A stretch of DNA of 64,000 bases from contig NZ_JACHIR010000001.1 in the NCBI RefSeq assembly GCF_014203355.1, forward strand, positions 5,892,038 to 5,956,037, written 5' to 3'. This stretch comes from Kutzneria kofuensis (GTDB lineage Bacteria; Actinomycetota; Actinomycetes; Mycobacteriales; Pseudonocardiaceae). This document shows, one piece after another, positions 554-57,310 of the stretch. The notes below the pieces were generated by a model, which ran no database searches, had not been told where the DNA came from, and saw only the letters and a program-made list of their open reading frames with translations. The stretch's first letter is position 1; the number at the start of each line of letters is the position of its first letter. The position numbers and the translations under genes were made by a program.

Positions 554-755
554 CCGCGAGTCCCGCTCTCGGGCTGGAGAGTTCCGTCCTCGGGCCCACC
601 CGCTTACGCAACCACGCTGGAAAATGCCCGAGGGCGGAACTCGCCGAGGCGCCCGAGAGCGGGACTCGCGGGGGGCATGCCACCGACACGCCGCCCCCCT
701 CGGCGGACGTGTGCCCGAAACCGTATTTCGGCCTGCCCGAGAGCGGGACTCGCGG
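554..755. repeat. Palindromic repeat array, GAGTCCCGCTCTCGGGC family
   Basis: The 21-bp unit GCCCGAGAGCGGGACTCGCGG occurs inverted at 554-574 and direct at 651-671 and 735-755, identical in all three copies. Nested inside is a diverged pair: 579-595 and 626-642 pair with one mismatch and carry GAGTTCCG..CTCGGGC. The array therefore holds five related units in alternating orientation. No reading frame here looks like a gene. A shorter relative (GGCGAGTCCCGC) flanks the gap between the 25.3-kb genes. Confidence 0.85.
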
Positions 756-760
756 ATGGG

Positions 761-788
761 TTGACATAACGGACAAATCGGATACGGT
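761..788 (+). promoter_or_regulatory. Sigma-70-type promoter of the small secreted protein
   Basis: TTGACA (761-766), a 16-bp spacer and TACGGT (783-788). It begins 5 bp after the last palindromic repeat unit. Transcription would start near 795, which supports the ATG at 816 rather than 804. Confidence 0.65.
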
Positions 789-815
789 CGTGGTGATCAT
801 GACATGGGGGTGCGC

Positions 816-1181
816 ATGACCACGACCCGTCGTATCGCGCTGATCTCCGCGGCAACCCTCGCCTGCGGGCTCGCGTTCACCGGCGCCGCGGCCGCCGGCA
901 GTCCGAACTGCCAGGACTGGTGGACGATCGACGACACGAACAAGACGGTCTTCACCGACCAGACCCGGTCCGTGACCTTCTGGGGCCACCGCAGCTGCGA
1001 CGGCCCGCGGACGCCGTCCTGGTGGTCGGCCCCGTACCGGCCGGACGAGCCCGACGACCACTCCTGGGAGTCCGTGAAGAAGCTGCACGGCAACGACCCC
1101 GGCTCCCTCGCCTACGGCTTCGAGATGCACAACACCCCAAAGGGCTGGGTTGCCACCGGCTTCGCCTCCGCGCACGGCTGA
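816..1181 (+). CDS. Small secreted protein, unknown function
   Basis: A 121-residue protein with a clear Sec signal peptide: MTTTRRIALISAATLACGLA plus an alanine-rich stretch, cleavage probably after GAAAA near residue 26-28. The mature part is about 95 residues, rich in Trp, Asp and His, with two cysteines (SPNCQDWW and HRSCDGP) that could form a disulfide. I recognise no family. The ATG at 816 has GGGGG 5-9 nt upstream; an in-frame ATG at 804 would leave almost no leader after the predicted promoter. It is monocistronic or read through into the hydrolase, which starts 18 nt later. Confidence 0.7.
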   Translation: MTTTRRIALISAATLACGLAFTGAAAAGSPNCQDWWTIDDTNKTVFTDQTRSVTFWGHRSCDGPRTPSWWSAPYRPDEPDDHSWESVKKLHGNDPGSLAYGFEMHNTPKGWVATGFASAHG

Positions 1182-1199
1182 CGGGCCTACCCTGCCGCC

Positions 1200-2099
1200 A
1201 TGACAGCGGGGGAACAGCTCGCACACGACGTCGGTCCCGACCACATCCAGATCTGCTACGAGCGATTCGGCGACCCGGCGGACCCGCCGGTGTTGCTGAT
1301 CATGGGCGCGAACGCCCAGATGATCGGCTGGCACGAGGGGTTCTGCCGGGAGCTGGTCGACCGCGGCCTGCACGTGATCCGGTTCGACAACCGGGACGCC
1401 GGCCGGTCGACGCACTTCCACGGGCAGGCCGACGTGATGGCGGCGCTGGCGGGTGACTTCTCCAGCGCCGCCTACTCGCTGGCGGACATGGTCGGCGACA
1501 CGCTGGGGCTGCTCGACGTGCTGGGCATCGACGGCGCGCACCTCGTCGGGGCCTCGATGGGCGGCTACATCGCCCAGCTCACGGCGATCGAGCACCCGGA
1601 GCGGGTCCGCTCGCTGACGTCGATGATGTCCACCACCGGCAGCCGTGCGGTCGGCCAGGCCGACATGGGGGTCTTCGCCGAGATCGGGTCCCAGCCCGGG
1701 GACGACCGCCAGGCCTACATCGACTGGTACGTCCACGCCCTGCCGATCTTCGGCTCACCGGCCTTCCCGCACGACCCGGCGGAGGTCGCCGAGCGTGGCG
1801 GCCGGTACTACGACCGCGGCTACGACCCGCAGGCGATGATGCGCCAGGGCGTCGCCGCCGTGGTGACGGGCGATCTGACGCCGAGGCTGCGGGCCGTCAG
1901 GACCCCGACCCTGGTGATCCACGGCGACGCCGACCGCATGTGCGACGTCAGCGGCGGCAGGGCCACCGCCGAGGCCATCCCCGGCGCCGAGCTGGTGATC
2001 ATCCCCGGCATGGGGCACAGCGTCCCCCGGCCGCTGTGGTCGGAGCTGGCCACGCGCATCTCCGACCACGTCCACCGGGCCGGAACTAACGCCGGTTGA
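1200..2099 (+). CDS. Alpha/beta hydrolase
   Basis: A 299-residue alpha/beta-hydrolase fold enzyme of the type often annotated as methylesterase or epoxide-hydrolase-like. The nucleophile elbow is GASMGG with Ser119. The oxyanion region HG is replaced by MGAN after the first strand. A late Asp (VIHGDADRMC) and His (GMGHSVP) complete a catalytic triad. FDNRDAGRS is the conserved post-strand-4 motif. The substrate cannot be inferred. Its 3' end overlaps the convergent transglutaminase gene by 14 bp, so there is no room for a terminator between them. Confidence 0.85.
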   Translation: MTAGEQLAHDVGPDHIQICYERFGDPADPPVLLIMGANAQMIGWHEGFCRELVDRGLHVIRFDNRDAGRSTHFHGQADVMAALAGDFSSAAYSLADMVGDTLGLLDVLGIDGAHLVGASMGGYIAQLTAIEHPERVRSLTSMMSTTGSRAVGQADMGVFAEIGSQPGDDRQAYIDWYVHALPIFGSPAFPHDPAEVAERGGRYYDRGYDPQAMMRQGVAAVVTGDLTPRLRAVRTPTLVIHGDADRMCDVSGGRATAEAIPGAELVIIPGMGHSVPRPLWSELATRISDHVHRAGTNAG

Positions 2100-4548
2100 C
2101 CACCGAGCGGGGCAGCACCCGGGCCGTGAACGCCAGCGGCGCGGTCCGGTGCATGCTGGCCCGCAGCTCCGCCACCGCCGACACCAGCGTGGGATCGGCG
2201 GTCTCGCGGCCGCCGTACCACGAGCCCTCGACGGCCGTGATCACCTGACGCAGCGCCTCCCGGCCGGGCTCGTCCAGCTCGTGCTCGCGGGCCAGCCGGC
2301 GGCCCGTAGCCCTGACGGTCTCGGTCGGCGGCACCGTGGTGCCGCGGTCGACCGACTCCGCGATCACCTCGGCCCACGCGGCCGCGGCGGCGTCCGCCCC
2401 GAGCGCGGCGATCTGGTGCAGCCGCCGACGCCGTCGCCACGCCCGGACCGAGGCCGGCGCGGCGCAGATCAGGGCCAGCACCAGGAATCCGGTGAGCCAC
2501 CACGACAGGTACGAGGACAGCAGCAGCACGACCAGCACCCAGCCGCCGACCACCGCCGGCAGCAGCCGCCCGGGCGGAATCCAGCGCGGCAGCCGCAGTG
2601 TGGGCGACCGACGCCCGCGGAGCAGGAAGGTCAGCACGAGCGCCAGCACGAGCAGCGTCCCGGTCAGCCACACCGGCGGCGCGGTCGGGTTGAGCAGCGA
2701 CGTCTCGCCGTCGGTCTGCGTGCTCGCCGCGGCGGCCGAGGACGACGTCGTCGGCTTGGCGGCGGTGGTGCTCGTCGGCCCGGCGGAGCCGCTGGTGCTG
2801 GGCAGGTCGTCGGGGCCGCCGGCCGAGGAGTTGTCGTCCATGTACGGCGGCGGGATCACCCGTGGGGTGGCTGGCGTCGGGTCGAACCGGATCCAGCCGT
2901 AGTCCGGGAAGTTGATCTCGACCCAGGCGTGCGCGTCCCCGCCGGTGATCGTCCGGACGTTCGGGTCGCCGTTGTACGGCACGCCCGGCGTGAAGCCGAT
3001 CGCCACCCGGGTCGGGATGCCCATCGAGCGGGTCATCGCGGCCAGCGCGGTCGCGTACTGCTCGCAGAAGCCGGACTTGGTGTTGAACAGGAAGTCGTCC
3101 AGCTTGGACGCCTTCGGGTCCTGCGGCGTCGCGTCCAGGCTGTACTTGAAGCCGTTCTCGCCGCTGTTGAGGTACCGGGTCAGCGCCCGCACCTTGTCGA
3201 AGGTGGAGCCGAGGTTGCCGGTCACCTGGTTGATCAGGTTCTTGACCCGGGAGTCGACCTGGACCGGCTGCCGGTACCGCGGGTCGACCCGCGACTGGTC
3301 GACGACGCCCTCGGCGCGCAGCTGCTCGGCGGTGGGCACGGCCAGCTGCGCGTGCTCGATGTAGCTGCCGTACTGCTGCGTGCCCGGCGCCCACACGGTC
3401 TGGGCCGTCGGGTCCCAGCGCCACTCCGAGCCCAGCCCGCTCACCGACACCGGCTGCCCGAACACCGGCGCCCACTGGTCCTCGAACTGGTTGGGCTGGA
3501 TGGTGATGGTGCTGACCGGGCCGCCGGCCGGCCTGGTGTCCATGATGTGCTGGCCGAGCTGGTCGCCGCTGGTGATCGGGGTGCCGACCTGCCAGCCCTC
3601 GTTGTCCACGTACCGATCCAGCGTCACCAGCCGCAGGTACTCCTCCGACTTCAGCCCGGTGACGCGGAAGAACTCCACGTTGACCTGGCCGGTGAGCAGA
3701 CCCTCCAGCTTCGTGTACGGCTTGAGCCCGAACGGCCCGCCGGCCGCGCCGCCGCCGGCGGCGCCGGGCAGCCGGCCAACGGTGCCGATCACGGTGAAGG
3801 TGGAGCCGACGATCAGCGCCAGCACCACCGACACCAGGACCACGCTGCTCGCCTCGTGGCTGGGCGTGCCCTGGGCGTAGCCGGGCAGGCCGGTCCGCCG
3901 GCCGCGCCACGCCTTGTGCTTGGCCCGGCCGTCCACGGCGAGCAGGGTGGCGAACGCGGCCGCGCCGAGCACGAAGCTCCACCACGGCAGCATCTCGTCG
4001 GCCAGCGACGCCGGCACCGCGTACACGCACAGCAGCACCAGCCCGGACGCGGCCGGCGCCTTCGCCTCGACGGCGAGCATGTCCACGACCACCGCGACCA
4101 GGCCGATGGCGATCACGATCAGACACAGGATGGGCTGGTCCGCGGGCACCGGCGGCACCTCGGTCTGCACCGCGGTGACCGACCGGCCCAGCACGTCGGC
4201 GATGTCGCCCAGCGCGGCCGGGCCGGGCAGGATGAGCAGGATCCCGTTGGTGCTGAACGACATCGTCACCAGGCACAGCAGCGCGAACAGCTCGCCGACC
4301 GCGACCACCGGCGGCGACAGCCGCAGCGAGCGCAGCAGCATGCCGGTGCCGACGATCAGGCCGATCGCGATCAGCAGGTAGAACAGCCACAGCGTGCCCT
4401 GCACGACCCCGGACAGCGCGGTCGCCGCGGCCAGCACGGCGAAGCCGGCGGCGACCGGCGTCATCGGCAGCGTCCACGCCGGCTCGGCCGGCGGCGGCGC
4501 CGGCTGCCGGGTCCGGTGCCGCGGCGGTTGCACGTCCGCCATGGTCAT
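2086..4548 (-). CDS. Membrane transglutaminase-like protein (TgpA/DUF3488 type)
   Basis: An 820-residue protein. The N-terminal half (about residues 25-250) has a run of hydrophobic membrane helices. An extracytoplasmic region follows, carrying a transglutaminase core with SGFCEQYA (Cys495), DAHAWVE (His540) and a following FDPTP Asp. A Ser/Thr-rich linker, another membrane segment and a DUF4129-like cytoplasmic tail complete it. It is the last gene of the MoxR/DUF58/transglutaminase operon. The ATG at 4548 overlaps the upstream stop by one base (TGATG), indicating translational coupling; a second ATG lies two codons inside. Such proteins are assumed to act at the envelope with their MoxR partner; the substrate is unknown. 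Confidence 0.88.
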   Translation of the reverse strand: MTMADVQPPRHRTRQPAPPPAEPAWTLPMTPVAAGFAVLAAATALSGVVQGTLWLFYLLIAIGLIVGTGMLLRSLRLSPPVVAVGELFALLCLVTMSFSTNGILLILPGPAALGDIADVLGRSVTAVQTEVPPVPADQPILCLIVIAIGLVAVVVDMLAVEAKAPAASGLVLLCVYAVPASLADEMLPWWSFVLGAAAFATLLAVDGRAKHKAWRGRRTGLPGYAQGTPSHEASSVVLVSVVLALIVGSTFTVIGTVGRLPGAAGGGAAGGPFGLKPYTKLEGLLTGQVNVEFFRVTGLKSEEYLRLVTLDRYVDNEGWQVGTPITSGDQLGQHIMDTRPAGGPVSTITIQPNQFEDQWAPVFGQPVSVSGLGSEWRWDPTAQTVWAPGTQQYGSYIEHAQLAVPTAEQLRAEGVVDQSRVDPRYRQPVQVDSRVKNLINQVTGNLGSTFDKVRALTRYLNSGENGFKYSLDATPQDPKASKLDDFLFNTKSGFCEQYATALAAMTRSMGIPTRVAIGFTPGVPYNGDPNVRTITGGDAHAWVEINFPDYGWIRFDPTPATPRVIPPPYMDDNSSAGGPDDLPSTSGSAGPTSTTAAKPTTSSSAAAASTQTDGETSLLNPTAPPVWLTGTLLVLALVLTFLLRGRRSPTLRLPRWIPPGRLLPAVVGGWVLVVLLLSSYLSWWLTGFLVLALICAAPASVRAWRRRRRLHQIAALGADAAAAAWAEVIAESVDRGTTVPPTETVRATGRRLAREHELDEPGREALRQVITAVEGSWYGGRETADPTLVSAVAELRASMHRTAPLAFTARVLPRSVVNRR

Positions 4549-6886: not shown

Positions 6887-6923
6887 CTTCGCCCTCCAAA
6901 GGCCACCGCGAGGTCCTCGCGTG

Positions 6924-7250: not shown

Positions 7251-7310
7251 GCCCCATCGCCGGTCCGGTCCCTGCCCGGGGACTTGGTTCGGGTTGGAGG
7301 TGGGCGTGAG

Positions 7311-7742: not shown

Positions 7743-7945
7743 GATTGGGGTCATGACCGACCCGGGTGCCGTTTGGCCTCGGTCCGCTCGGCTATCGGCC
7801 CTGGCGCACCTTCCCCGGCGCCAGGTTCGACGGGCGGGCGGGGACCTGACTGCATCCGACGCCGGCACGGCGCCAGTGCCCATGAGAGGGCGTCCCACCG
7901 ACGAGAGGGGAGTGAGCGGCAACCGCGTGTGGAAGGGGGTTGGCC
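7743..7945 (+). ncRNA. Structured rsmH leader, candidate mraW RNA motif
   Basis: This 203-nt mraZ-rsmH spacer holds a perfect 8-bp hairpin (CCTGGCGC 7800-7807 / GCGCCAGG 7818-7825) and a small GCGG-CAA-CCGC hairpin at 7916-7926. The latter lies just before the purine-rich ribosome site GGAAGGGGG. A conserved mraW RNA motif has been described upstream of this gene in actinobacteria; position and structure fit, but I cannot align it here. Confidence 0.4.
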
Positions 7946-11500: not shown

Positions 11501-11632
11501 CGCCACATGCGCTTCCCACTTGCGCGCTAACGCCACATGGGAAGCGCATGTGGCGTCTCCGCGCATAGCCGCAGGCTTCGCCACGCGCGCTTCCCATGTG
11601 GCACCTGGGCGCAAGTGAGAAGCGCATGTGGC
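11501..11632. repeat. Nested palindromic array, CACATGCGCTTCCCA family
   Basis: A perfect 18-bp inverted repeat (11501-11518 and 11538-11555, CGCCACATGCGCTTCCCA) lies inside a larger one: 11502-11524 pairs with 11610-11632 over 23 bp with one mismatch. A further partial unit (GCGCTTCCCATGTGGC) is at 11587-11602. The array begins 11 bp after the ftsI stop and probably serves as its terminator region. The rest of the 279-bp gap shows no gene. Confidence 0.85.
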
Positions 11633-11769
11633 AAACCGTGCAACGGTCGTGCACCGCTACGACGTTCGTCGCAGCAGCGGCGGAACCCGGCTGGGCTCAT
11701 CGGGTGACAGGCGTCGGCTCCTTGACGCCGCGTCAGGTAGAAGGGAATGCCGGACTCGGGGAGGTGCGG

Positions 11770-12990
11770 ATGGTCTGCGAGCAGCAGGCGGCGCGGTATT
11801 CGGACGTCTTTGCCGTACGCGAGTTCCGTGCCGTGTTCGCAGCCCAGCTGCTGTCGGTGATCGGCGACCAGTTCGCCCGGGTGGCGCTGTCGGTCCTGGT
11901 GTTCGACCGCACGCAGTCCCCGGGGCTGACGGCCCTGGCGTACGCGCTGACGTACCTGCCGGACCTGTTCGCGGGGCCGCTGCTGGCGGGCATCGCGGAC
12001 CGCTACCCACGCCGCACGGTGATGGTGGCGACGGACCTGGCCCGAGCGATTCTGGTGGCGCTGATGGCCTTGCCGGGGATGCCGTTGCCGCTGCTGTGCG
12101 GCCTCCTGGTGGGCGTGCACGCACTGGGAGCGCCGTTCAGCGCGGCGCGGGCGGCGACGCTGGCGTCGGTGCTCCGGGGGGACCGCTACGTGCTCGGCAC
12201 GGGCGCGGCGGACATGGTGGACCAGTTCGCGCAGGTGCTGGGCTTCGTGGTCGGCGGCCTGGTGATCGTCGCCACCGGTCCGGACCGCGGCCTGCAGATC
12301 GACGCGGCGACGTTCCTGATCTCGGCGGTGATCGTACGGCTCGGCGTGCACGACCGCCCGGTGCCGGCGTTCCCGACCGTGCGCGACCCGGTGCAGCCGT
12401 GGTGGCCGTCGCTGGTGACGGGCGCGGTGACGGTGTGGACGACGCCGAAGCTGCGGGCCCTGGTGCTGCTCGCCTGCGTCGCCGGTTTCTACGTGACGAT
12501 CGAGGCGTTGGCGGTCCCGTACGCGGTGGACGTGACGGGGTCGGAGGGCGGCGTCGGGCTGCTGCTCGCGGCCGGGCCGGCGGGCACGATCGTCGGCATG
12601 TGGGCGATCAGCCGGCTGCTGCCGGGTCGCCGCCTGCAACTGCTCGGCCCGCTCGCCGTGACGGCCTGCCTTCCGTTGGTGCTGAGCGCCTTGCGCCCTT
12701 CCGTACCGGTGATGGTTGCCCTTCTGGTCGTGTCCGGTATCGGCTCCGCCTACCACATGGTGGCCCGCTCCGCGTTCGTGCAGTCGGTGCCCGATCACGG
12801 CCGTGGCCAGGCATTCGGGCTCGCGGTGATGGCGCTGCGGACCGCGCAGGGCACCGGCCTGCTGCTCGCGGGCGTGTGCGCGGAGACGTTCGGCGCGCCG
12901 AACGTGTTGTCCGGTGCCGGCATCACCGGCACACTGGTCGCGGCGGCGGCGAGCCTGACCTGGTACCAGGCTCGCCGCCGCCGCAGATAG
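11770..12990 (+). CDS. MFS transporter, EntS/MFS_3-like exporter
   Basis: A 406-residue major facilitator protein with about 12 hydrophobic segments. The typical cytoplasmic loop 2-3 motif appears as GIADRYPRRTVM. The opening FREFRAVFAAQLLSVIGDQF is characteristic of MFS_3 proteins such as enterobactin exporter-like carriers. The start at 11770 has GGGAGGTG just upstream and precedes the first helix normally; a longer in-frame start at 11596 would translate repeat DNA. It interrupts the dcw cluster between ftsI and murE together with the next gene. Substrate unknown. Confidence 0.85.
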   Translation: MVCEQQAARYSDVFAVREFRAVFAAQLLSVIGDQFARVALSVLVFDRTQSPGLTALAYALTYLPDLFAGPLLAGIADRYPRRTVMVATDLARAILVALMALPGMPLPLLCGLLVGVHALGAPFSAARAATLASVLRGDRYVLGTGAADMVDQFAQVLGFVVGGLVIVATGPDRGLQIDAATFLISAVIVRLGVHDRPVPAFPTVRDPVQPWWPSLVTGAVTVWTTPKLRALVLLACVAGFYVTIEALAVPYAVDVTGSEGGVGLLLAAGPAGTIVGMWAISRLLPGRRLQLLGPLAVTACLPLVLSALRPSVPVMVALLVVSGIGSAYHMVARSAFVQSVPDHGRGQAFGLAVMALRTAQGTGLLLAGVCAETFGAPNVLSGAGITGTLVAAAASLTWYQARRRRR

Positions 12991-13094
12991 TCGTCACCAG
13001 TTGTTGGCATCGTCGAACACGATGGAATTCCCTTCTGCCGCTGGGAAATCGTCGCGGGTTGCTACGCGTGACGCCGCCGTGACGGTTCACTCGG

Positions 13095-14471
13095 ATGATG
13101 TCCGGCATGCCGCCGATCATCGACACGCCGTGCCCGCAGCTGGTCCCCGGCGACCCGGGCTACGACGACGCGCGCCGGGTCTGGAACGGGGAGATCGACC
13201 GCAAGCCCGCGGTGATCGCCCAGGTCACCGGCCCCGCCGACGTGACCGCCTGCCTCGCCCACGCCCGTGCCCACGGCCTTGACGTCACGGTTCGCGGCGG
13301 CGGTCACAACCTCGGCGGCGCCGCCGTCGCCGACGGGGCCGTACTGATCGACCTGAGCGGCCTGCGGACCGTGCACGTCGACCCTGACACCAGGACCGCC
13401 CGTGTGGCCGGTGGCGCCACCAACGCCGACCTCGACGCCGCCACCCAGGCGCACGGGCTCGCCGTGCCCGCCGGGACGTACAGCGACACCGGCATCGGCG
13501 GCCTCACCCTCGGCGGCGGATTCGGTTGGCTCACGGCAAAACACGGCCTTGCGGTGGACAACCTGATCTCCGCCGAGGTCGTGCTCGCCGACGGCCGGGT
13601 GGTGCGGGCCTCCGCCGACTCGCACCCCGACCTGTTCTGGGCGCTGCGGGGCGGCGGCGGGAACTTCGGTGTCGTCACCGAGTTCGAGTTCCGGCTGCAC
13701 CCCGTCGGCCCGCTCGTCGACGTCGGCTTGTTCTTCTGGGAGCTCGAACGCGGCGCCGAGGCGCTGCGTTTCGTCCGCGACCTCGTGCCGACCCTCGGCA
13801 ACACCGGCCTGATGATCGTCGGCATGACTGCGCCGCCCGCTCCTTTCGTGCCCGAGGAGCATCACGGCAAGCTCGGCTACTCGCTGATCCTCGCCGGCTT
13901 CGACGGCACCGAAGCCCATGCCGCCCTGGCCCGGCGGGTCCGCGACACGCTGCCGCCGCTGTTCGAGCTGGTGACCCCGTTGCCGTACACCGAGTTGCAG
14001 AAGATGCTCGACGGCATCGGCTTCCGGGGCAACTACGCGTACGAGAAGTCGGTCTACGTCGAGGACTTCAGCGACGGGCTCATCGATGTCCTGGTCGCCA
14101 ACCTTCCCGCCAAGGCTTCTCCCATGTCCGCCACCCCCATCGCCCTTCTCGGCGGCGCCTACACCGACACCCCCGACCACTCCACCGCCTTCGGGGGCAT
14201 CCGTCGCACCGGCTTCGTCGTCGGCCTCACCGCCATCTGCCCCGTGCCCGAGCTCCTCCCCGCCGACCGGGCGTGGGTCCGGTCCCACTGGGAGCAGCTC
14301 CTCCCGTACGCCAGCAACACGGGCGGCTACGTGAACTTCATGTCCGACTACGAACAGGACCGCGTCAAGGTCACCTACGGCCCGCTGAAGTACGAGCGCC
14401 TGGCCCGGATCAAGGCCGCCTACGACCCCGACAACGTCTTCCACCACAACGGCAACATCAAGCCGCGGTAA
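13095..14471 (+). CDS. FAD-linked oxidase (PCMH/BBE family)
   Basis: A 458-residue flavoprotein oxidase. The PCMH FAD-binding domain spans about residues 35-205. RGGGHN at 68-73 puts His71 at the position that covalently holds the 8-alpha carbon of FAD. GTYSDTGIGGLTLGGG is the second loop and has Ser where bicovalent enzymes carry the cysteine, so a single covalent link is expected. The berberine-bridge C-terminal element is NFMSDYEQDRVKVTYG followed by YDPDNVFHHN. Relatives oxidise sugars or secondary metabolites; the substrate is not evident. Three clustered starts (13095, 13098, 13107) are possible and none has a strong ribosome site. Confidence 0.85.
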   Translation: MMSGMPPIIDTPCPQLVPGDPGYDDARRVWNGEIDRKPAVIAQVTGPADVTACLAHARAHGLDVTVRGGGHNLGGAAVADGAVLIDLSGLRTVHVDPDTRTARVAGGATNADLDAATQAHGLAVPAGTYSDTGIGGLTLGGGFGWLTAKHGLAVDNLISAEVVLADGRVVRASADSHPDLFWALRGGGGNFGVVTEFEFRLHPVGPLVDVGLFFWELERGAEALRFVRDLVPTLGNTGLMIVGMTAPPAPFVPEEHHGKLGYSLILAGFDGTEAHAALARRVRDTLPPLFELVTPLPYTELQKMLDGIGFRGNYAYEKSVYVEDFSDGLIDVLVANLPAKASPMSATPIALLGGAYTDTPDHSTAFGGIRRTGFVVGLTAICPVPELLPADRAWVRSHWEQLLPYASNTGGYVNFMSDYEQDRVKVTYGPLKYERLARIKAAYDPDNVFHHNGNIKPR

Positions 14472-14546: not shown

Positions 14547-14791
14547 GGGGCTCTTGGCGGCCGAGATGGGAATGGTTGAGCCGGGCCGAAATGCGATTTG
14601 CAGCCGGCAAGGCGTGATCCACTTCACGGCCGAGCAACCTTTTGCCGCCGGGACAACCGACCGCGAGGCCCCGCCGGTGCCTGGACTGTCGCCGGATTTC
14701 ACCCGCCGCCCCAGAACGCAACCACCACCCAGGCCGATGCGGCGGGTTAAATCCGGCTAAGGAAGGCACCGGCCCCGAAGGGGCCGAGCCC
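14494..14791. repeat. 298-bp segment bounded by 21-bp inverted repeats
   Basis: GGGCTCGGCCCCTTCGGGGCC occurs at 14494-14514 and perfectly inverted at 14771-14791. Inside, 14691-14709 and 14739-14757 form a second inverted pair of 19 bp with one mismatch (GCCGGATTTmACCCGCCGC). No convincing coding frame lies within. It may be a MITE-like element or a structured regulatory region ahead of murE; I see no target-site duplication. Confidence 0.55.
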
Positions 14792-25273: not shown

Positions 25274-25275
25274 AA

Positions 25276-25360
25276 CCCCGGCGAGTCCCGCCCACAGTCA
25301 CACCGAATGCACGAAACGGATTCACGCATTCGGGGTGACGCTAAGCGGGACTCGCCGGGG
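25276..25360. repeat. 85-bp nested palindrome between convergent genes
   Basis: Outer arms CCCCGGCGAGTCCCGC (25276-25291) and its exact complement (25345-25360) enclose inner arms GTCACACCGAATGC (25297-25310) and GCATTCGGGGTGAC (25326-25339), which have one mismatch. It starts within 3 bp of the ftsQ stop. Its right arm lies inside the 3' end of the convergent gene and encodes that protein's last residues. It likely terminates both transcripts. Confidence 0.85.
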
Positions 25361-26444
25361 TCCAGCCGGTCTTCAAGCCGGCGCCGGACAGCGGCACGAC
25401 AACCTCGCCCCACGAACCGCCGGCTGCGCGGGCGGCCGCCCAGCACACGGCGGCGGTGTCCTCGACGTACCAACCCTTCCGCGCCAGCTCGGACCGGCCC
25501 GCCAGCACCTGCTCCTCGGTCACGGTCGCGAACTCGTCAACGGCGGCGAGGATCTCCGCGCCACGGGCTGGCGCGGCGATGGCGATGCCCTCGGCGATGG
25601 TCGGCGAAGCGTCAACCGCAAGCGGCATCGAGGATCCGGCGCGCCAAGCGGCAGCCAAGGGGGCACAGTTCGCTGCCTGTACGGCCACGATGCGTGGGGC
25701 CGAGGGGATGAGTCCCGCGGCCAGCAACCCTGCCACCGCACGGGTGACTCCGAGCACGAGCGTCCCGTTCCCGACGGGCAGCACGAAGGTGTCGGGCAGC
25801 CGCCCGCCCAACTGCTCCCACACCTCGAACGCGTAGGTGGCGGTGCCGAGGTGGAACACGGGGTTGTAGACGTGACTCGCGTAGAAGGCCCCGCCGGATT
25901 CGACGGCCGAGATGGCCGCCGCGGCGGTGGCCTCCCGGTTGCCGGGCACCAGGTTGACGACGGCGCCGTGCGCCCTGACCTGGGCGATCTTCTTGGGCGA
26001 CGTCGACGACGGCACGAAGATCTCGGCCGGCAACCCGACCCGTGCCGAGTACGCGGCGACGGCGGTGCCGGCGTTGCCGCTGGAGTCGGCGATCACCCGG
26101 GACGCGCCGGCGGCGAGGGCTTGGGCGAGCAGGAGAACAACGCCGCGGTCCTTGAACGACAGTGTGGGGCTGGCGTACTCGACCTTGACGGAGATGCCGT
26201 CGCCGGCGGGCAGCAGTGGGGTGATCCCCTCACCGAGCGTGGCCGGCTGCCACCACCGAGCCGGCACGCCGAGGGCCTCGGCGTAACGCCAGGTCGTCAG
26301 CGGTCGGCCGGCGAGCTGTCCCAGCGGCACGGGGGCCGCGGGCGGCGCGGCCAGCCGCATCGGCACGCCGCAGCAGCGCCACGCCGGATCGCTGAACTCG
26401 AACTGTCGACCGCACTCGGGGCACACGCGCACAGGACCAGCCAC
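25341..26444 (-). CDS. Threonine-synthase-like PLP enzyme with N-terminal zinc ribbon
   Basis: A 367-residue fold-type II PLP enzyme. It begins with a small Cys motif (VCPECG ... WRCCG) seen in threonine-synthase-like proteins. It then has SFKDRG carrying the PLP lysine, DSSGNAGTAVAAY for the phosphate/substrate loop and PVGNGTLVLG for cofactor phosphate binding. Whether it makes threonine or uses another phosphorylated amino acid is undecided. The GTG at 26444 is chosen because TACCGT ends 6 nt upstream, a leaderless arrangement; a GTG at 26468 is the alternative. It lies in inverted orientation between ftsQ and ftsZ. Confidence 0.82.
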   Translation of the reverse strand: MAGPVRVCPECGRQFEFSDPAWRCCGVPMRLAAPPAAPVPLGQLAGRPLTTWRYAEALGVPARWWQPATLGEGITPLLPAGDGISVKVEYASPTLSFKDRGVVLLLAQALAAGASRVIADSSGNAGTAVAAYSARVGLPAEIFVPSSTSPKKIAQVRAHGAVVNLVPGNREATAAAAISAVESGGAFYASHVYNPVFHLGTATYAFEVWEQLGGRLPDTFVLPVGNGTLVLGVTRAVAGLLAAGLIPSAPRIVAVQAANCAPLAAAWRAGSSMPLAVDASPTIAEGIAIAAPARGAEILAAVDEFATVTEEQVLAGRSELARKGWYVEDTAAVCWAAARAAGGSWGEVVVPLSGAGLKTGWTPASPA

Positions 26445-28223: not shown

Positions 28224-28283
28224 GCTGCCGCGAGCCACGCACGCCGCCCCCGACCGTCGGCCCCACAAGGCCCCGCCGGCCAC

Positions 28284-28421
28284 GTGAGTGGCTCATTTCG
28301 CTTCTGGAGCCACCTGAGCCACTCACATGCCTCCTCCGTGGAGCACGTGAGTGGCTCAGGTGCCTCCTGGGGGTAAGTAAGCCACTCACGTGCCCCCCCG
28401 GGAACCAACTGAGCCACTCAG
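28284..28421. repeat. Palindromic array, GTGAGTGGCTCA family
   Basis: Five copies of a 12-bp unit lie in alternating orientation: GTGAGTGGCTCA at 28284-28295 and 28347-28358, and its complement at 28315-28326, 28378-28389 (one mismatch) and 28410-28421 (last base differs). AGGTGCCTCC spacers are also shared. The array fills the ftsZ-pgeF gap, and the same family occurs at 41972-42026. Confidence 0.85.
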
Positions 28422-35984: not shown

Positions 35985-36018
35985 GGCTGTGTGGCCCGCA
36001 CGTTCCCCCCACCAGATT

Positions 36019-36061
36019 CCATACGCTGCCGTACGGATCACGTCCATACGCTACCGTATGG
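36019..36061. promoter_or_regulatory. Two TetR-type operator palindromes
   Basis: CCATACGCTGCCGTACGG (36019-36036) and CCATACGCTACCGTATGG (36044-36061) are 18-bp palindromes set 25 bp apart; the second is perfect in its 7-bp arms. The second contains TACCGT (36052-36057), a plausible -10, and ends 4 nt before the regulator's start. Binding would block transcription, so autoregulation is expected. Confidence 0.7.
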
Positions 36062-36065
36062 AATC

Positions 36066-36614
36066 GTGGCCGGGAAGCGCCGGACGAAGGATGACTGGGT
36101 CGCCGCGGCCCTCGAGATGATCGCCGAGCGGGGCGTGAGCGCCCTCGCCGTCGAGCCGCTCGCGCAGCGGCTCGGCGCCACCAAGGGCAGCGCGTACTGG
36201 CACTTCCCCAGTCGGGAGGCGCTGTTGTCGGCCGCGCTGGACCAGTGGACGGGGTCGATCTCCGACGGGCTGGGCGCGTTCGCGGCGGTCGACCGGCCGC
36301 CGGACGAGCAGCTGTGGCTGGTGTTCAGCCGGGTCGTCGTGGACCGCGTGGACAACGACCTCGAGTTCGCCATGCTCGCGGCGGCCGACGACCCGCTGGT
36401 GGCGCAGGCGATGCGCTGCCTGACCGAGGTACGGTTGTCGTTCCTCTGCGGCCGGTTCGTGGCGCTCGGCTTCGCCGAGCCCGTGGCCCGGGAGCGGGCG
36501 CTGCAGATGCACACCTTCCTCCTCGGTCACGTGCAGATCGTTCGCCGGGGCGCGGAGATCGGCGACCTCGTCGAGTACGCGCGCGGCGTCTACCGGCTGC
36601 TGACCGCCCCGTAG
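36066..36614 (+). CDS. TetR family transcriptional regulator
   Basis: A 182-residue regulator. The helix-turn-helix is MIAERGVSALAVEPLAQRLG followed by ATKGSAYWHFPSREALL (about residues 17-55). The C-terminal ligand domain is all-helical. The GTG at 36066 was chosen because it gives the standard family N-terminus and lies directly behind the two operators; the longer in-frame start at 35991 would translate the operators. The transcript may be almost leaderless. No divergent target gene is present, so the regulon may be elsewhere or be this gene with yggU. Confidence 0.85.
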   Translation: MAGKRRTKDDWVAAALEMIAERGVSALAVEPLAQRLGATKGSAYWHFPSREALLSAALDQWTGSISDGLGAFAAVDRPPDEQLWLVFSRVVVDRVDNDLEFAMLAAADDPLVAQAMRCLTEVRLSFLCGRFVALGFAEPVARERALQMHTFLLGHVQIVRRGAEIGDLVEYARGVYRLLTAP

Positions 36615-38927: not shown

Positions 38928-39010
38928 AAGGTCATGAGTGCCAGCGTCAAGCCCCGGCTAGCTGGCCGGCAACCCTCCTCCGCGGTGGGGTGCCCCGGGT
39001 GAGGACCAGG
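38928..39010 (+). ncRNA. SAM-IV riboswitch
   Basis: The sequence from GGTCATGAGTGCCAGCG (38931) through AGCCCCGGCTAGCTGGCCGG, CAACCCTCC, CGCGGTGGGGTGCCCCGGG to GAGGACC follows the SAM-IV consensus almost base for base. A TACGGT -10 lies at 38913-38918. Downstream, GGACC...GGTCC and CGGGTC-CCT-GACCCG hairpins stand immediately before the GAGGAG ribosome site, suggesting translational sequestration. S-adenosylmethionine binding should repress the aminotransferase gene. Confidence 0.92.
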
Positions 39011-39081
39011 CCCGTCGCACACGGCGACCGGGCAAGCGCGGACCCTCTCCAAGGCGGGTCCCTGACCCGAGGAGCACCCCG

Positions 39082-41030: not shown

Positions 41031-41952
41031 CCTGCGCACGCTGCCCGTGCCCGACGGCCTCGACGGCATGCGCGTCGACGCCGGCCTGTCCAAGCTGCTC
41101 GGCCTGTCCCGGACCACCGTCGCCACGCTGGCCGACTCCGGTGACGTGCTGGTCGACGGCCGCGCCGTCGGCAAGTCCGACCGGCTGGTCGCCGGCGCGT
41201 GGCTCGAAGTGACGCTGCCGGCGCCCGCGCAGCCCGTCACCGTGCAGGCGATCCCCGTCGAGGGCCTGGTCGTGCTGTACGAGGACGACGACGTGGTCGT
41301 GGTGGACAAGCCCGTGGGCGTCGCCGTGCACCCGAGTCCCGGGTGGACCGGTCCGACCGTGGTCGGCGGGCTGGCCGCCGCCGGCATCCGGATCTCCACC
41401 TCCGGCGCCGCCGAGCGGCAGGGCGTGGTGCACCGGCTGGACGCCGGCACCACCGGCGTGATGGTCGTGGCCAAGAGCGAGCACGCGTACACCGTGCTGA
41501 AGCGGGCGTTCAAGGAACGCACCGTGGACAAGGTCTACCACGCGCTCGTGCAGGGGCATCCCGACCCGACGCGCGGCACCATCGACGCGCCCATCGACCG
41601 GCACCCCAAGCACGACTACAAGTGGGCGGTCGTGGCCAGCGGGCGGCCCAGCGTCACCCACTACGAGATGATCGAGGCGTTCCGGGCGGCGTCGCTGCTG
41701 GAGGTGCACCTGGAGACGGGGCGTACCCACCAGATCCGCGTGCACTTCTCCGCGCTGCGCCACCCCTGCGTCGGCGACCTGACCTACGGGGCGGACCCGG
41801 TGCTGGCCAAGCGGCTCAACCTGACCCGGCAGTGGCTGCAGGCCAAGACGCTGTCGTTCCACCACCCCGCCGACGGCGAGTGGGTGACGTTCGAGAGCCA
41901 GTACCCGGACGACCTGCGCGACGCCCTGGAAACACTCCGCGCCGAGGGCTGA
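41023..41952 (+). CDS. RluA/RluD-family pseudouridine synthase
   Basis: A 309-residue rRNA pseudouridine synthase. An S4-like RNA-binding domain occupies about residues 12-70 ([25 protein letters not shown]). The catalytic domain follows, with HRLDAGTTG carrying Asp140. [11 protein letters not shown] and VGDLTYG are RluD signatures. Operon with lspA. It is followed by a hairpin of the GTGAGTGGCTCA family. Confidence 0.9.
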
Positions 41953-41971
41953 CCCCTTCTCCCCTTTTTTC

Positions 41972-42026
41972 CGCTACGTGAGTGGCTCATTTTCGCTCAG
42001 GAGGCACCTGAGCCACTCACGTAGCG
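41972..42026. repeat. Palindrome, GTGAGTGGCTCA family; bidirectional terminator
   Basis: CGCTACGTGAGTGGCTCA (41972-41989) and its exact complement (42009-42026) form an 18-bp stem with a 19-nt loop. It is flanked by a T-run on the left and an A-run on the right, as expected for a terminator serving both convergent genes. The unit matches the five-copy array at 28284-28421. Confidence 0.85.
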
Positions 42027-42040
42027 AAAAATGCCCGGTG

Positions 42041-52440: not shown

Positions 52441-52557
52441 GAGCCCGACGCTAGGTCGCCGGCCTGGGGCGACGCGTCCGTCCAGAGATGTCAGTTGGGG
52501 TACATCCCGAGATATAGCTCAGGGACTTCTCAGCTGCCCGGAGATAGATTTCGCCGC

Positions 52558-53238
52558 GTGAAACGTGCTGTGGCGGCCGACGCGTTGCTCGCCGCCGCGA
52601 TCTTCGTGGCCACCTTCGCCCTGGCGCACGACGCGGTGCCGCTCCAGATCGCGTTGGTCGCGGCGCTGGCATGGCGTCGGCAGGCGCCGGCGCTGGTGTT
52701 CGGCCTGATCGCTGCCGCCGCGTTCGTCCAGTGGCTGCTGGATCTTCGGCTGCCGGCGGACATTGCGCTGCTGGTGGCGGTCTACACCGTCGGCGCGCAC
52801 ATGACCCTGCGCTGGCTGGTCGCCGCCTGGGCGGTGCTCGAAGCCGGCATCGTCATGTACGCCATCGGCTGGGGAGGATTCCTCGTCTCCGCCACCTTCC
52901 TGACCGTGGCCGGCGTCGTCGCGGCGGTGCTGGGCGTGGTGATGCGGCTGCGCCGGGCGCAGGTGGTGCTCGACCGGGAACGGGCCGTCGCCGCCGCCCG
53001 GGAACGGACCAGCATCGTCCGGGAACCCGAGCGGCTGGGCCTGCTCACCGCTCGTGAACGCGAGGTTCTGGTGGAGCTGGCCGCCGGCCGGTCCAACGCG
53101 GAGATCGCCGGCCGGCTGCACCTCGCCCACTCCACCGTCAAGACGCACGTCAGCCGGATCCTGCCGAAACTGGGGTTACGCGACCGCGCGCAGGCAGTGG
53201 TGTTCGCGTACGAGACCGGACTGGTCCGCCCGGGTTAG
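52558..53238 (+). CDS. Membrane-anchored LuxR protein, apparent kinase/response-regulator fusion
   Basis: A 226-residue protein with two parts. Residues 1-130 contain four or five membrane helices like the sensor part of actinobacterial NarL-type histidine kinases. [20 protein letters not shown] (131-150) is the coiled stretch that normally leads into the kinase H-box. Instead, from about residue 152 the sequence is a LuxR DNA-binding domain ([32 protein letters not shown]). H-box, ATPase and receiver domains are all absent. This looks like an in-frame deletion fusing a kinase N-terminus to its response regulator's C-terminus. It may act as a membrane-tethered one-component regulator or be a remnant. 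Confidence 0.75.
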
Positions 53239-53249
53239 GGTCCTGGCTC

Positions 53250-54515
53250 GTGAGACCCGACGAGCTCATCGCCCTCGACCGCGCCCACGTCTGGCACCCC
53301 TACGCGCCCATGCCCGGCCGGATCGACCCGCTGGTCGTGACCGACGCCGAGGGCGTGCGGCTGCGGCTGGCCGACGGGCGGGAACTGGTCGACGGGATGG
53401 CCTCGTGGTGGTCGGCCATCCACGGCTACCGGCACCCGGTGCTGGACGAGGCCGTGCGCGACCAGCTGGGCCGGATGAGCCACGTCATGTTCGGCGGCCT
53501 GACCCACGAGCCGGCCGTGCGCCTGGCCACCACCCTCGTGGAGATCACGCCGGAGCCGCTGCGGCACGTGTTCCTGGCCGACTCCGGGTCGGTGTCGGTC
53601 GAGGTCGCGATCAAGATGTGCCTGCAGTACTGGCGGTCGCTGGGGCGGCCCGGCAAGCGCCGGCTGCTGACGTGGCGGCGCGGCTACCACGGCGACACGT
53701 TCCACCCGATGAGCGTCTGCGACCCCGACGGCGGCATGCACTCGCTGTGGACCGGCGTCCTGCCGCAGCAGGTCTTCGCCGATCCGCCGCCGGCCGCCTT
53801 CGAGCACGACTACGTGCGGCATCTCGTGGACCTCGTCGAAGAACACGCCGACGAGCTGGCGGCGATCGTCGTCGAACCGGTCGTGCAGAACGCCGGCGGC
53901 ATGCGCTTCCACGACCCCCGCTACCTGCACGTGCTGCGCGAAGTCAGCCTCGCCAACGACGTGCTGCTGGTCTTCGACGAGATCGCCACCGGCTTCGGCC
54001 GCACCGGCGAGCTGTTCGCCGCCGACCATGCCGGCATCAGCCCGGACGTCATGTGCGTCGGCAAGGCCATGACCGGCGGCTACATGACCATGTCCGCCGC
54101 GCTGTGCACGTCCCAGGTCGCCGACGGCATCTCCCGCGGCGAGCTCCCGGTGCTCGCCCACGGGCCCACCTACATGGGCAACCCGCTGTCGTCCGCGGTC
54201 GCCAACGCCTCCATCGACCTGCTGCTTCGCCAGGACTGGCGGGCCGAGATCAAGCGCATCGAGACCGGCCTGCGCGCCCTGGAGCGGGCCCGGTCCGTCC
54301 CCGGAGTGGCCGACGTGCGGGTGCTCGGCGCGATCGGGGCCGTGCAGCTCGACCATCCGGTGGACATGGCTGCCGCCCAGAAGGCTGCCGTCGACCACGG
54401 CGTGTGGCTGCGCCCGTTCAACGACCTGATCTACACCATGCCGCCGTACGTGATCGGGGACGAGGACCTGTCTCAAGTCTGCAACGCCATCGTTGCGGCG
54501 GCGATGGTCGGCTGA
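53250..54515 (+). CDS. bioA: Adenosylmethionine-8-amino-7-oxononanoate aminotransferase BioA
   Basis: A 421-residue class III PLP aminotransferase of biotin synthesis, converting KAPA to DAPA with SAM as amino donor. The PLP lysine is Lys272 in CVGKAMTGG, with [11 protein letters not shown] before it. [10 protein letters not shown] and [15 protein letters not shown] are BioA-specific substrate motifs, and [10 protein letters not shown] is the conserved C-terminal loop. The GTG lies 8 nt after TAGGGT, which itself overlaps the upstream stop, suggesting its own near-leaderless promoter. Confidence 0.95.
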
Positions 54516-54550
54516 GCTCGCCACGAGCCCAACCACTAATCTGATGGGTC

Positions 54551-55267
54551 GTGAACATCCTCGTGATCACCGGCACCGGCACCGGTGTCGGCAAGACCAT
54601 GGTCACCGCGGCCTGCGCGGCCCTCGCGGTGGACAGCGGCCAGCGGGTCGCCGTGGTCAAGCCCGCGCAGACGGGCGTCGGCCCGCAGGAGCCGGGTGAC
54701 CTGGACGAGGTCGCGAGGTTCGCGGGCAAGATCACCACGAGGGAGCTGCGCCGCTACCCCGAGCCGCTGGCCCCGGACACCGCCGCGGCCCGCGCCGGCA
54801 TGCCGCAGGTGCACCCCGGGGAGATCGCCTCGGCCGTCGCCGAGCTGGCCGCCGAGCACGACCTGGTGCTGGTCGAGGGCGCGGGCGGCCTGCTCGTCCG
54901 CTTCGACGACGAGGGCGCGACGCTGGCCGACGTGGCCTGGGCGCTCAACGCCCTCGTGCTGATCGTCGCCGAGGCCGGCCTGGGCACGCTCAACCACACC
55001 GCGCTGACCGCCGAGGTGCTGCTCAAGCGGGGAATCGAGTGCGCGGGGGTGGTGATCGGCAGCTGGCCGGCCGAGCCGGACCTGGCCTCCCGCTGCAACC
55101 TGGTCGACCTACCCGAGGCGGCCGGTGGTCCGCTGCTCGGCGCGCTGCCGGAGGGCGCAGGTCTGTTGGACCCCTCAGACTTTCTTGAGGTCGCCCGGGC
55201 CGCCATGTCACCGTGGCTCGGCGGCACGTTCGACCCGGACGTGTTCGCCGAGCAGTTCACGGCGTGA
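54551..55267 (+). CDS. bioD: Dethiobiotin synthetase BioD
   Basis: A 238-residue ATP-dependent enzyme closing the ureido ring of dethiobiotin. The P-loop is [12 protein letters not shown] (residues 8-19), with KPAQTG and [12 protein letters not shown] as the substrate and Mg motifs. It starts 36 nt after bioA; bioF, usually between them, is missing. TAATCT lies 8 nt before the GTG start, so a separate start site is possible. Confidence 0.94.
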
Positions 55268-55272
55268 GTCTC

Positions 55273-55285
55273 GTAACACCGTTCG
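55273..55285. promoter_or_regulatory. BioQ-like operator upstream of bioB
   Basis: GTAAC-ACC-GTTCG; its complement CGAAC-GGT-GTTAC differs at one base from the 13-bp TGAAC-N3-GTTAC site that I recall for the TetR-type biotin regulator BioQ of corynebacteria and mycobacteria. It stands 59 nt before the bioB start. Confidence 0.55.
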
Positions 55286-55343
55286 ACGAGGTCACGTGCG
55301 GCAGACTGCACCCGGACGTCGCCCCGAGACAGGAGAGCTGCCT

Positions 55344-56357
55344 GTGACCGCCAGCGTGGACACCGACATCATCGCCGTCGCCCGTGAGCAGGTGCTCGAA
55401 CGGGGCGAAGGGCTGTCGCAGGAGCAGCTGCTCCAGGTGCTCAAGCTCGGCGACGACCGGCTGGCGGAGCTCCTGCAGTTGGCCCACGAGGTGCGGATGC
55501 GCTGGTGCGGGCCGGAGGTCGAGGTCGAGGGCATCGTCAGCCTGAAGACCGGCGGCTGCCCCGAGGACTGCCACTTCTGCTCCCAGTCCGGACGCTTCCC
55601 GTCGCCGGTGCGCTCGGCCTGGCTGGACATCCCCGGCCTGGTGCGGTCGGCCCGGGAGACCCGGGCCACCGGCGCCACCGAGTTCTGCATCGTCGCCGCC
55701 GTCCGCGGTCCGGACGCCCGGCTGCTGTCCCAGGTCCGTGAGGGCATCAAGGCCATCCGCGAGGACGGCAACGACATCCAGATCGCCTGCTCGCTCGGCA
55801 TGCTCACGCAGGAGCAGGTGGACGAGCTGGTGGCGATGGGCGTGCACCGCTACAACCACAACCTGGAGACCGCCCGCTCGCACTTCCCGAACGTGGTCAC
55901 CACGCACACGTGGGAGGAGCGCTGGGAGACCCTGCGCATGGTCCGCGAGGCCGGCATGGAGGTCTGCTGCGGCGGCATCATCGGCATGGGCGAGACGGTC
56001 GAGCAGCGCGCCGAGTTCGCCGCCCAGCTGGCCGAGCTCGGCCCGGACGAGTGCACGATGAACTTCCTCATCCCGCAGCCGGGCACCCCGTACGAGCAGT
56101 ACGAGGTCGTCGAGGGCCGTGACGCGCTGCGCACGGTCGCCGCGTTCCGGCTGGCCATGCCCCGGCCGCTGCTGCGCTTCTCCGGCGGCCGCGAGCTCAC
56201 GTTCGGCGACCTGGGCACCAAGCAGGGCATGCTCGGCGGCATCAACGCCATCATCGTCGGCAACTACCTGACCAACCTGGGCCGCCCGGCCGCCCAGGAC
56301 CTGGAGATGCTGGACGAGCTGAAGATGCCGGTCAAGGCGTTGAACCAGACGCTGTAG
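55344..56357 (+). CDS. bioB: Biotin synthase BioB
   Basis: A 337-residue radical-SAM enzyme that inserts sulfur into dethiobiotin. The [4Fe-4S] cysteines are Cys72, Cys76 and Cys79 in [29 protein letters not shown] and FSGGREL are conserved [2Fe-2S]/substrate regions, with the auxiliary cluster residues in the barrel. The GTG at 55344 has AGGAGAG 7-13 nt upstream. A candidate BioQ box lies ahead of it and bsaP follows within 10 nt. Confidence 0.95.
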
Positions 56358-56366
56358 AGGGTGGAC

Positions 56367-56573
56367 GTGAACGCCGAATTCTGCGCCCGCTGCGGCACCG
56401 CCGCCGCCGAGGGCGACCACGCGCACTGCGCCGTCATGCTCGCCTCGATCGACCCGCCGCGGTTCTGCGTCGAGTGCGGGCGGCGCATGGTCGTCCAGGT
56501 GACACCCGCCGGATGGGTGGCGAATTGCAGCCGACACGGCGAGCGAACGTCGACGTCACCGAGCGTCGGCTAG
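56367..56573 (+). CDS. bsaP: Biotin synthase auxiliary protein BsaP
   Basis: A 68-residue cysteine-rich protein directly after bioB. The block [20 protein letters not shown] and CSRHGE closely match the mycobacterial protein (Rv1590-type) reported to be needed for BioB function, probably through an Fe-S cluster. Cysteines are in FCARCG, HCAVM, FCVECG and NCSRHG. The GTG at 56367 is spaced well from AGAGGG; a GTG at 56361 is the alternative and would add two residues. Co-transcription with bioB is clear from the 9-nt gap. Confidence 0.85.
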
Positions 56574-56583
56574 GGTCGCTCGA

Positions 56584-57240
56584 ATGTCGGAGCATGCGGG
56601 CGAGCGGGCCGAGCCGATGCGCATCCCGCCGGTGACCGAGAAGGAACCGGAGCCTGTCTCGTCAGAGGTGCGGATCACGCCGCCGACGCCAACGGTGGCG
56701 GAGATCATGGCGATGCTGCCGCAGGCCAGACGCCCCCGGGTGGTGGTCAAGCGGGACCTGCTGCCGGCCGTGAGCGTGCTGTCCACGGTGGCGCTGACCG
56801 GGCTCCTGGTCGGCTGGCTGTGGTCCATCCTGGCGCCGCCGCAGCGCGTGATCCTGGTGGACGGCCAGCAGCTGCCGCTGCTGGACGAGAGCTACCACCG
56901 GTTCGACGACCTCATCCTGTTCGTGCTCATCGGCCTCGGCATGGGCCTCGTGGTCGGCGGCGTCGTGTGGATGCTGCGGGAACGCCGCGGCCCGGTGATC
57001 ATGATCGCCGCCGTGCTGGGCTCCGCGCTGGGCGCGTGGCTGGCGATGAAGGTCGGCGTCTCCTGGGCCGGCAGCCACTACGCGCTGACCGGCACGCCCG
57101 CGAACCGCGCCGTGTTCGACCAGGCGCCGGTTCTGGAGTCCACCTGGGTCGTTCTCGCCCAGCCGCTGGCCACCGCGCTGGCATACGGGACCCTGACGGC
57201 CTGGAACGGCATGGACGACCTGGGCCGCCGCCTCGGCTAG
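56584..57240 (+). CDS. DUF2567 membrane protein
   Basis: A 218-residue protein with four hydrophobic segments (about residues 60-80, 105-128, 138-158 and 185-205). An extracytoplasmic loop, ILVDGQQLPLLDESYHRFDD, follows the first helix. It matches the DUF2567 gene that follows bioB-bsaP in mycobacteria (Rv1591-type); function unknown. TAGGGT ends 7 nt before the ATG and overlaps the bsaP stop, so it may be leaderless with its own promoter. Confidence 0.85.
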   Translation: MSEHAGERAEPMRIPPVTEKEPEPVSSEVRITPPTPTVAEIMAMLPQARRPRVVVKRDLLPAVSVLSTVALTGLLVGWLWSILAPPQRVILVDGQQLPLLDESYHRFDDLILFVLIGLGMGLVVGGVVWMLRERRGPVIMIAAVLGSALGAWLAMKVGVSWAGSHYALTGTPANRAVFDQAPVLESTWVVLAQPLATALAYGTLTAWNGMDDLGRRLG

Positions 57241-57257
57241 TTTGTCAACCCTTCGTC

Positions 57258-57310
57258 GTTCGGAACGGACCATTCCTAAACTCGGAGTTTAGGAATGGTC
57301 CGTTCCGAAC
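57258..57310. repeat. 53-bp perfect palindrome between convergent genes
   Basis: GTTCGGAACGGACCATTCCT plus AAACTC (57258-57283) is followed after a single base by its exact complement (57285-57310): 26-bp arms with no mismatch. It lies 17 bp after the DUF2567 stop and 6 bp from the end of the convergent LON-domain gene. Confidence 0.9.

What the first reader, a model, noticed from the sequence alone, without database searches (positions are those of the whole stretch)
554..57310. Four unrelated intergenic palindrome families share one architecture
Loci 554-755 and 25276-25360 (GAGTCCCGC), 11501-11632 (CACATGCGCTTCCCA), 28284-28421 and 41972-42026 (GTGAGTGGCTCA) and 57258-57310 (GGAACGGACCATTCC) all consist of long near-perfect inverted repeats, often nested or alternating. 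All are intergenic and usually within 20 bp of stop codons. Perfect arms of 16-26 bp, and identical units at distant loci, imply recent spread or active homogenisation. They could be REP/BIME-like elements moved by a RayT-type transposase, terminators, or gyrase/protein binding sites.
Basis: partly seen in the sequence, partly recalled or inferred. Interest (0 to 1): 0.7.

Follow-up and report, generated by a model that had tools for sequence, protein, structure and literature searches.

The report
REP-like palindromes at Kutzneria gene ends
Short palindromic DNA repeats, copied to many places and mostly sitting just after genes, mark this soil actinobacterium's genome much as REP repeats mark other bacteria, but the transposase thought to spread REPs was not found in it or in six relatives.

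Summary
The six loci are real, very stable inverted repeats and their core words are dispersed genome-wide. The genome is a Kutzneria (seven genomes of the genus held). The families F1-F4, with at least three more (F5-F7) seen in the window or in relatives, differ in copy number between species; F2-F4 were tested and are near-absent outside the genus. They sit at gene 3' ends, half of them between convergent genes. Each element is a doublet or array of a short near-palindromic unit, as in REP/BIME/REPIN elements.

Canonical U-tailed terminators fit poorly. No target-site duplication was detected.

Extras: the same gene end carries different families in different species at 8 of 18 shared sites, not shown to exceed chance; unit arms stay 96-97% identical at orthologous sites while flanks do not; F2 units lie 29-33 or 41-44 bp apart whatever their orientation, about 3 or 4 helical turns, hinting at a constraint on double-stranded DNA.

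Verdict: untagged, RAYT-less REP-like families; how they spread and what they do is inferred, not shown.

The parts
554..755 (.). F1a locus: GCGAGTCCCGCTCTCGGGC words, inverted and nested (558 +, 651 -, 735 -, plus weaker copies at 579 + and 626 -)
   Evidence: between genes ending 486 and starting 804
11501..11633 (.). F3 locus: two hairpins of CCACATGCGCTTCC units after ftsI
14691..14757 (.). F6 element GCCGGATTTCACCCGCCGC, 29-nt loop, upstream of the Mur ligase gene
   Evidence: not in the finding
25275..25361 (.). F1b element (85-bp form) directly after the ftsQ stop codon; overlaps the end of the called minus-strand PALP-family gene 25341-26366
28281..28421 (.). F2 array, five units with at most 1 mismatch in orientation + - + - -, between ftsZ and a Cu-oxidase_4 gene
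41967..42031 (.). F2 doublet with T-run on the 5' side and A-run on the 3' side, between convergent genes
57257..57311 (.). F4 doublet GGAACGGACCATTCC, 26-bp arms, between convergent genes

Best explanation
REP-like dispersed repeats of the genus Kutzneria: short near-palindromic units (about 15-23 bp), mostly paired head to head at a fixed distance or strung into arrays, that expanded separately in each species and persist almost only in the untranslated DNA after genes. Shown: dispersal, near-restriction of F2-F4 to the genus, species-specific copy number, 3'-end placement, doublet and array structure, no RAYT or intact Y1 transposase. Inferred: that the doublet is the copied unit; that copying passes through a hairpin or single-stranded intermediate handled by an enzyme not identified, or since lost; that in RNA the hairpins stabilise 3' ends or limit read-through, which is why gene ends tolerate or favour them.
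For: Counts against reversed words. Genus restriction: F2 word 108, 48, 24, 14, 7, 0, 0 in the 7 Kutzneria genomes and 0-4 in each of 143 others; F4 in 3 of 7 and F3 in 5 of 7, with 1 hit in 53 other genomes each. Placement: 48 of 97 clusters convergent, 5 divergent; all hairpins of score 13 or more in gaps of at least 10 bp, six Kutzneria stretches: 63 of 125 convergent, 71 of 491 tandem, 6 of 182 divergent. F2 head-to-head distance 31 bp in 43 of 46 pairs. Arms 96-97% identical at orthologous sites (F3 10 pairs, F4 7 pairs) while flanks are 45-52%. Same placement described for REPs, conv-REPs mostly within 20 bp of both 3' ends (PMC3733652 section 15).
Against: The defining GTAG/CGTC tag and RAYT of known REPs are missing. 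Head-to-tail pairs are common in F2 (44 of 100 neighbouring pairs), whereas PMC3733652 calls them absent or rare in most genomes. No clean gain of an element at a precise empty site was proved; one absence (G001 at 57240) looks like a loss between AGTT repeats. Long hairpins at convergent ends also occur in other genera (11 of 51 gaps). The F4 unit does not fold alone. No RNA data.
Confidence: 0.7

Rival explanations
1. Intrinsic, mostly bidirectional terminators whose words are shared because good terminators were duplicated.
For: 3'-end and convergent placement; very stable hairpins; Streptomyces terminators are U-poor and long (PMC12207403 passages).
Against: 6 or more T in 12 nt in 1 of 114 3' flanks. 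Mean U in 10 nt after the stem 1.12 (F2), 1.75 (F4), 1.29 (F3), 2.50 (F1); 4 or more U in 10 of 122 ends, against 3-4 reported for Streptomyces. Arm pairing equals column shuffles in F1-F3, slightly above in F4 (0.887 vs mean 0.872, max 0.887). Arrays of units all in one orientation (L066, L089) have no long hairpin. At 520-550, before F1a, a separate hairpin is kept in relatives with compensating changes.
Confidence: 0.25
2. F2 arrays (perhaps all families) are double-stranded DNA binding sites, phased on the helix, for a nucleoid or insulator protein at gene ends.
For: Centre distances of neighbouring F2 units in three species, 102 after removing similar spacers from 172: 81 at 29-33 bp, 15 at 41-44, one each at 26, 35, 36, 51, 54, 73; outside head-to-head pairs n 57, vector length 0.76 at 10.5 bp. 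Unit nearly dyad-symmetric. Arms conserved without covariation.
Against: Distances are related by duplication; best-fit period wandered from 9.8 to 10.8 bp between subsets. The 20 loci from G005 and G006 were picked by me, favouring places with several words. F3 distances that can be read do not clearly follow the rule. No protein known.
Confidence: 0.2
3. Miniature transposons (MITEs) moved by a DDE transposase.
For: Inverted-repeat ends and dispersed copies.
Against: No target-site duplication in F1 (11 copies), F2 (46), F3 (13), F4 (19); best z 3.1 of 63 tests for F2, 2.2 or less for the others. No transposase-like group recurs among 481 neighbour proteins (groups judged from sequence, no family search).
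Confidence: 0.06
4. REPs mobilised by a RAYT.
For: Architecture like REPINs, inverted doublets at a set distance (PMC3116915 passages).
Against: NF047646 0 of 7 genomes, E. coli control rings; Y1_Tnp 0 of 6 relatives, one fragment in own genome.
Confidence: 0.04

Closest known systems
REP / BIME elements, GTAG and CGTC superfamilies (Di Nocera et al. 2013, PMC3733652; abstract, passages and section 15 seen)
   Same: Short palindromic units, head-to-head dimers, clusters, several families per species, uneven copy number between relatives, placement after genes and between convergent genes; CGTC families also lack a dedicated transposase; the paper mentions untagged REP-like repeats in a few bacteria.
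   Different: No conserved GTAG or unpaired CGTC tag; F2 has many head-to-tail pairs; hosts are Actinomycetota, for which the words actinobacter and Streptomyces do not occur in that paper.
REPINs of Pseudomonas (Bertels and Rainey 2011, PMC3116915; passages seen)
   Same: Two inverted conserved words at a fixed distance with a variable spacer.
   Different: No RAYT; distance about 30 bp centre to centre in F2-F4 instead of 71 or 110 bp between REPs; spacer changes are not compensated within F1-F3.
Streptomyces intrinsic terminators (TERMITe, PMC12207403; passages seen)
   Same: Long, stable hairpins after genes in GC-rich actinobacteria.
   Different: Fewer U after the stem, repeated words, lineage-specific families.

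Membership tests
REP in the broad sense (repetitive extragenic palindrome) | Short palindromic word in many copies | tested here: met
REP in the broad sense (repetitive extragenic palindrome) | Extragenic, mainly after genes, rarely between divergent genes | tested here: met
   genes called by my own script
REP in the broad sense (repetitive extragenic palindrome) | Inverted dimers and clusters | tested here: met
GTAG or CGTC REP superfamily | Conserved unpaired GTAG or CGTC at one end of the unit | tested here: not met
   Unit logos; F7 has CGTC at both ends but paired, F4 only weakly
RAYT-mobilised REP / REPIN | RAYT (Y1) transposase gene in the genome | tested here: not met
RAYT-mobilised REP / REPIN | Inverted doublet at a fixed distance | tested here: met
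   F2 31 bp in 43 of 46 head-to-head pairs; F4 and F3 matched at fixed spacers
Canonical intrinsic terminator | U-tract after the hairpin | tested here: not met
Canonical intrinsic terminator | Transcripts end there | not testable with these tools
   no RNA data
MITE of a DDE transposon | Target-site duplication | tested here: not met
BIME as gyrase or protein site | Binding of gyrase or another protein | not testable with these tools
   spacing is suggestive only

The most novel reading that the evidence does not exclude
The F2 arrays are helically phased arrays of a nearly dyad-symmetric unit (CAC-N-TGAGTGGCTCA-N-TTG, one conserved mismatch), each about 3 or 4 turns from the next whatever its orientation, read as double-stranded DNA by an unknown protein that marks or insulates gene ends; the other Kutzneria palindrome families are exchangeable versions of such marks, spread without any RAYT.
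Probability: 0.18. Interest if true: 0.75.

Novelty: new variant of a known kind. Interest (0 to 1): 0.45.

Why it matters
REP spread is usually explained by RAYT transposases. A genus with several palindrome families, species-specific expansions and no RAYT found in any held genome is a natural test of how REP-like repeats spread and why they stay at gene ends. The F2 spacing rule gives a simple prediction, a protein on one face of the DNA, that a pull-down could settle.

Tried and rejected
Streptomyces as host: my first guess, dropped. Rfam on the window at gathering threshold: only SAM-IV and mraW RNA. RAYT/Y1: negative. Target-site duplication: none. Recurrent neighbour gene: nothing telling; the largest groups look to me like common superfamilies, and the near-identical pairs are overlapping stretches or one duplicated gene beside near-identical F2 arrays (L060, L065). 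Compensating change within families: not seen in F1-F3, weak in F4; between species the F4 site at 57240 does keep pairing with other letters in G005, which counts against a pure sequence reading. Family exchange as a special process: families differ at 8 of 18 sites with a named family in two or more genomes, but two of the 8 are F4 vs related F7 and one is F2 vs F3; different-family genome pairs are 11 at convergent sites (15.9 pairs of any two families expected at random) and 10 at tandem sites (2.5 expected, but from only 3 sites). I do not claim an excess. Helical phasing in F3: the few distances readable do not clearly show it. Other genera: 11 of 51 convergent gaps with a hairpin in 100-kb samples of four genera, against 23 of 41 in the first 100 kb of four Kutzneria stretches. 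F1, F5, F6, F7 were not counted in whole genomes outside the genus. Literature: searches listed no paper that by title or abstract start describes such families in Kutzneria or Pseudonocardiaceae; only open-licence PubMed Central papers are held. PMC12306157 (one table passage seen) lists three Actinomycetota species in a REP survey. PMC1525189, PMC2817692, PMC3686654, PMC4210621 were seen in listings only.
Full report
Where it is. The window holds the division and cell-wall cluster of a 10.4-Mb actinobacterial genome. Its genus has seven held genomes.

Observation. The six loci are present. Seven hairpins of score 16 or more are in the window against a mean of 0.05 in 20 shuffles: five loci of the finding, the F6 element at 14691-14757, and one at 12940-12984 inside a called gene; 554-755 exceeds the finder's loop limit. 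Six stretches fold far better than shuffles.

Dispersal. Own genome, both strands, against the word read backwards: F2 108 vs 1, F4 191 vs 21 with up to 2 mismatches, F3 48 vs 21 with up to 2 mismatches, 12 exact, F1 13 vs 0 paired places. The F3 count with mismatches is the weakest; its exact 14-base core gives 18 vs 1.

Genus restriction. The F2 word in 150 genomes: 108, 48, 24, 14, 7, 0, 0 in the genus and 0-4 in each of 143 others, whose reversed-word controls run 0-6. F4: 69, 38 and 4 in three of seven, one hit in 53 others. F3 core: 104, 70, 69, 18, 14 in five of seven, one hit in 53 others. F2 and F4 peak in the own genome, F3 in G005, G001 and G002. I count about 40 places of the F1 element in G005 in the capped list. 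Two genus members, G003 and G004, have none of F2, F3 or F4 in these exact-word searches.

Placement. In 97 clusters of F1-F4 with two or more units: 48 convergent, 39 tandem, 5 overlapping a called gene, 5 divergent; core word within 20 bp of a facing stop codon in 11 of 12 (F1), 27 of 43 (F2), 14 of 15 (F3), 17 of 21 (F4). Stretches were fetched around listed places only, so not every copy was examined, and lone words were dropped. All hairpins of score 13 or more, named or not, in gaps of at least 10 bp in six Kutzneria stretches: 63 of 125 convergent, 71 of 491 tandem, 6 of 182 divergent. Genes were called by my own script.

Anatomy. The F2 unit is CAC-N-TGAGTGGCTCA-N-TTG, nearly dyad-symmetric with one conserved mismatch (149 own units); its consensus folds alone. 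Units form head-to-head doublets and arrays of up to seven, in mixed or uniform orientation. The F3 consensus unit also folds alone; the F4 unit does not. F2 and F3 match at 16 of 23 consensus positions, F4 and F7 at 18 of 26 (0 of 400 shuffles each), F5 and F7 at 16 of 26 (3 of 400), uncorrected for 28 comparisons. So the families may be four superfamilies: F2/F3, F4/F5/F7, F1, F6.

F2 spacing. Centre-to-centre distances of neighbouring units (up to 110 bp) in the own genome, G005 and G006, 102 left of 172 after removing similar spacers: 81 at 29-33 bp, 15 at 41-44, one each at 26, 35, 36, 51, 54, 73. For pairs that are not head to head, where a hairpin cannot impose the distance, the vector length at 10.5 bp is 0.76 (n 57); for those above 33 bp 0.70 (n 20); the best-fitting period varied from 9.8 to 10.8 bp among subsets. 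The samples are related by duplication and the 20 relative loci were picked by me from the list, so this is a hint, not proof.

Turnover. After ftsZ the own genome, G005 and G006 carry F2, G001 and G002 carry F5; at 41952 the own genome carries F2 and G001, G002, G005 carry F3; at 486 the own genome carries F1 and G002 F2. Families differ at 8 of 18 sites with a named family in two or more genomes. Genome pairs sharing an occupied site: 35 convergent (24 same family, 11 different) vs 15.9 expected, 28 tandem (18 same, 10 different) vs 2.5; pairs are not independent, and much is shared descent. Two words of one family within 150 bp occurred in none of up to 3000 random coding draws (genes under 400 bp skipped).

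Conservation. At orthologous sites with the same family and equal loop length: arms 96% (F3, 10 pairs), 97% (F4, 7), 100% (F2, 1); loops 77, 62, 53%; flanks 45, 52, 25% (arms were found allowing up to 3 mismatches, 2 for F2, which biases them upward). Within families the arms do not covary in F1-F3 and barely in F4. So letters, not only pairing, are kept, by selection or renewed copying.

What it is not. Canonical terminators: few U after the stem and, at 41967, the T-run lies on the 5' side; F1 has the most U (mean 2.50, 5 of 22 ends with 4 or more). RAYT-REPs: models fail in the genus while E. coli rings. MITEs: no target duplication. Known RNA families: none at these loci.

Conclusion. REP-like gene-end palindromes, ordinary in kind, unusual in lacking the expected transposase and tag, in the number of families in one genus, and in the F2 spacing. 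Spread and function remain inferred.

Noticed in passing
window 36015-36065: Two near-identical palindromes (CCATACGCT.CCGTA.GGA) directly upstream of a TetR-family gene (36066-36614), kept in the five relatives examined; probably its operator, not one of the dispersed families.
   Followed up: partly
window 11770-14471: An MFS transporter gene and an FAD-binding/berberine-bridge-like gene lie between ftsI and the Mur ligase gene of the division cluster.
   Followed up: no
window 25341-26366 (minus): A PALP-family (pyridoxal-phosphate enzyme) gene on the opposite strand sits between ftsQ and ftsZ; the F1b element overlaps its called 3' end.
   Followed up: no
window 520-550: A separate terminator-like hairpin before the F1a locus, kept in relatives with changes on both sides of the stem in G001, G002 and G005.
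   Followed up: partly
window 38930-39044 and 7758-7867: SAM-IV riboswitch and mraW RNA matches.
   Followed up: no
L060 2353-2531 and L065 2393-2571: Two near-identical six-unit F2 arrays far apart in the genome, each beside a copy of the same gene (98% identical proteins), so larger segments were duplicated.
   Followed up: partly
L195-L199 (G009) and L185-L189 (G060): Long hairpins with words of their own at some convergent gene ends in other genera, e.g. GAGGCGTTGTGG arms at two places in G009.
   Followed up: no
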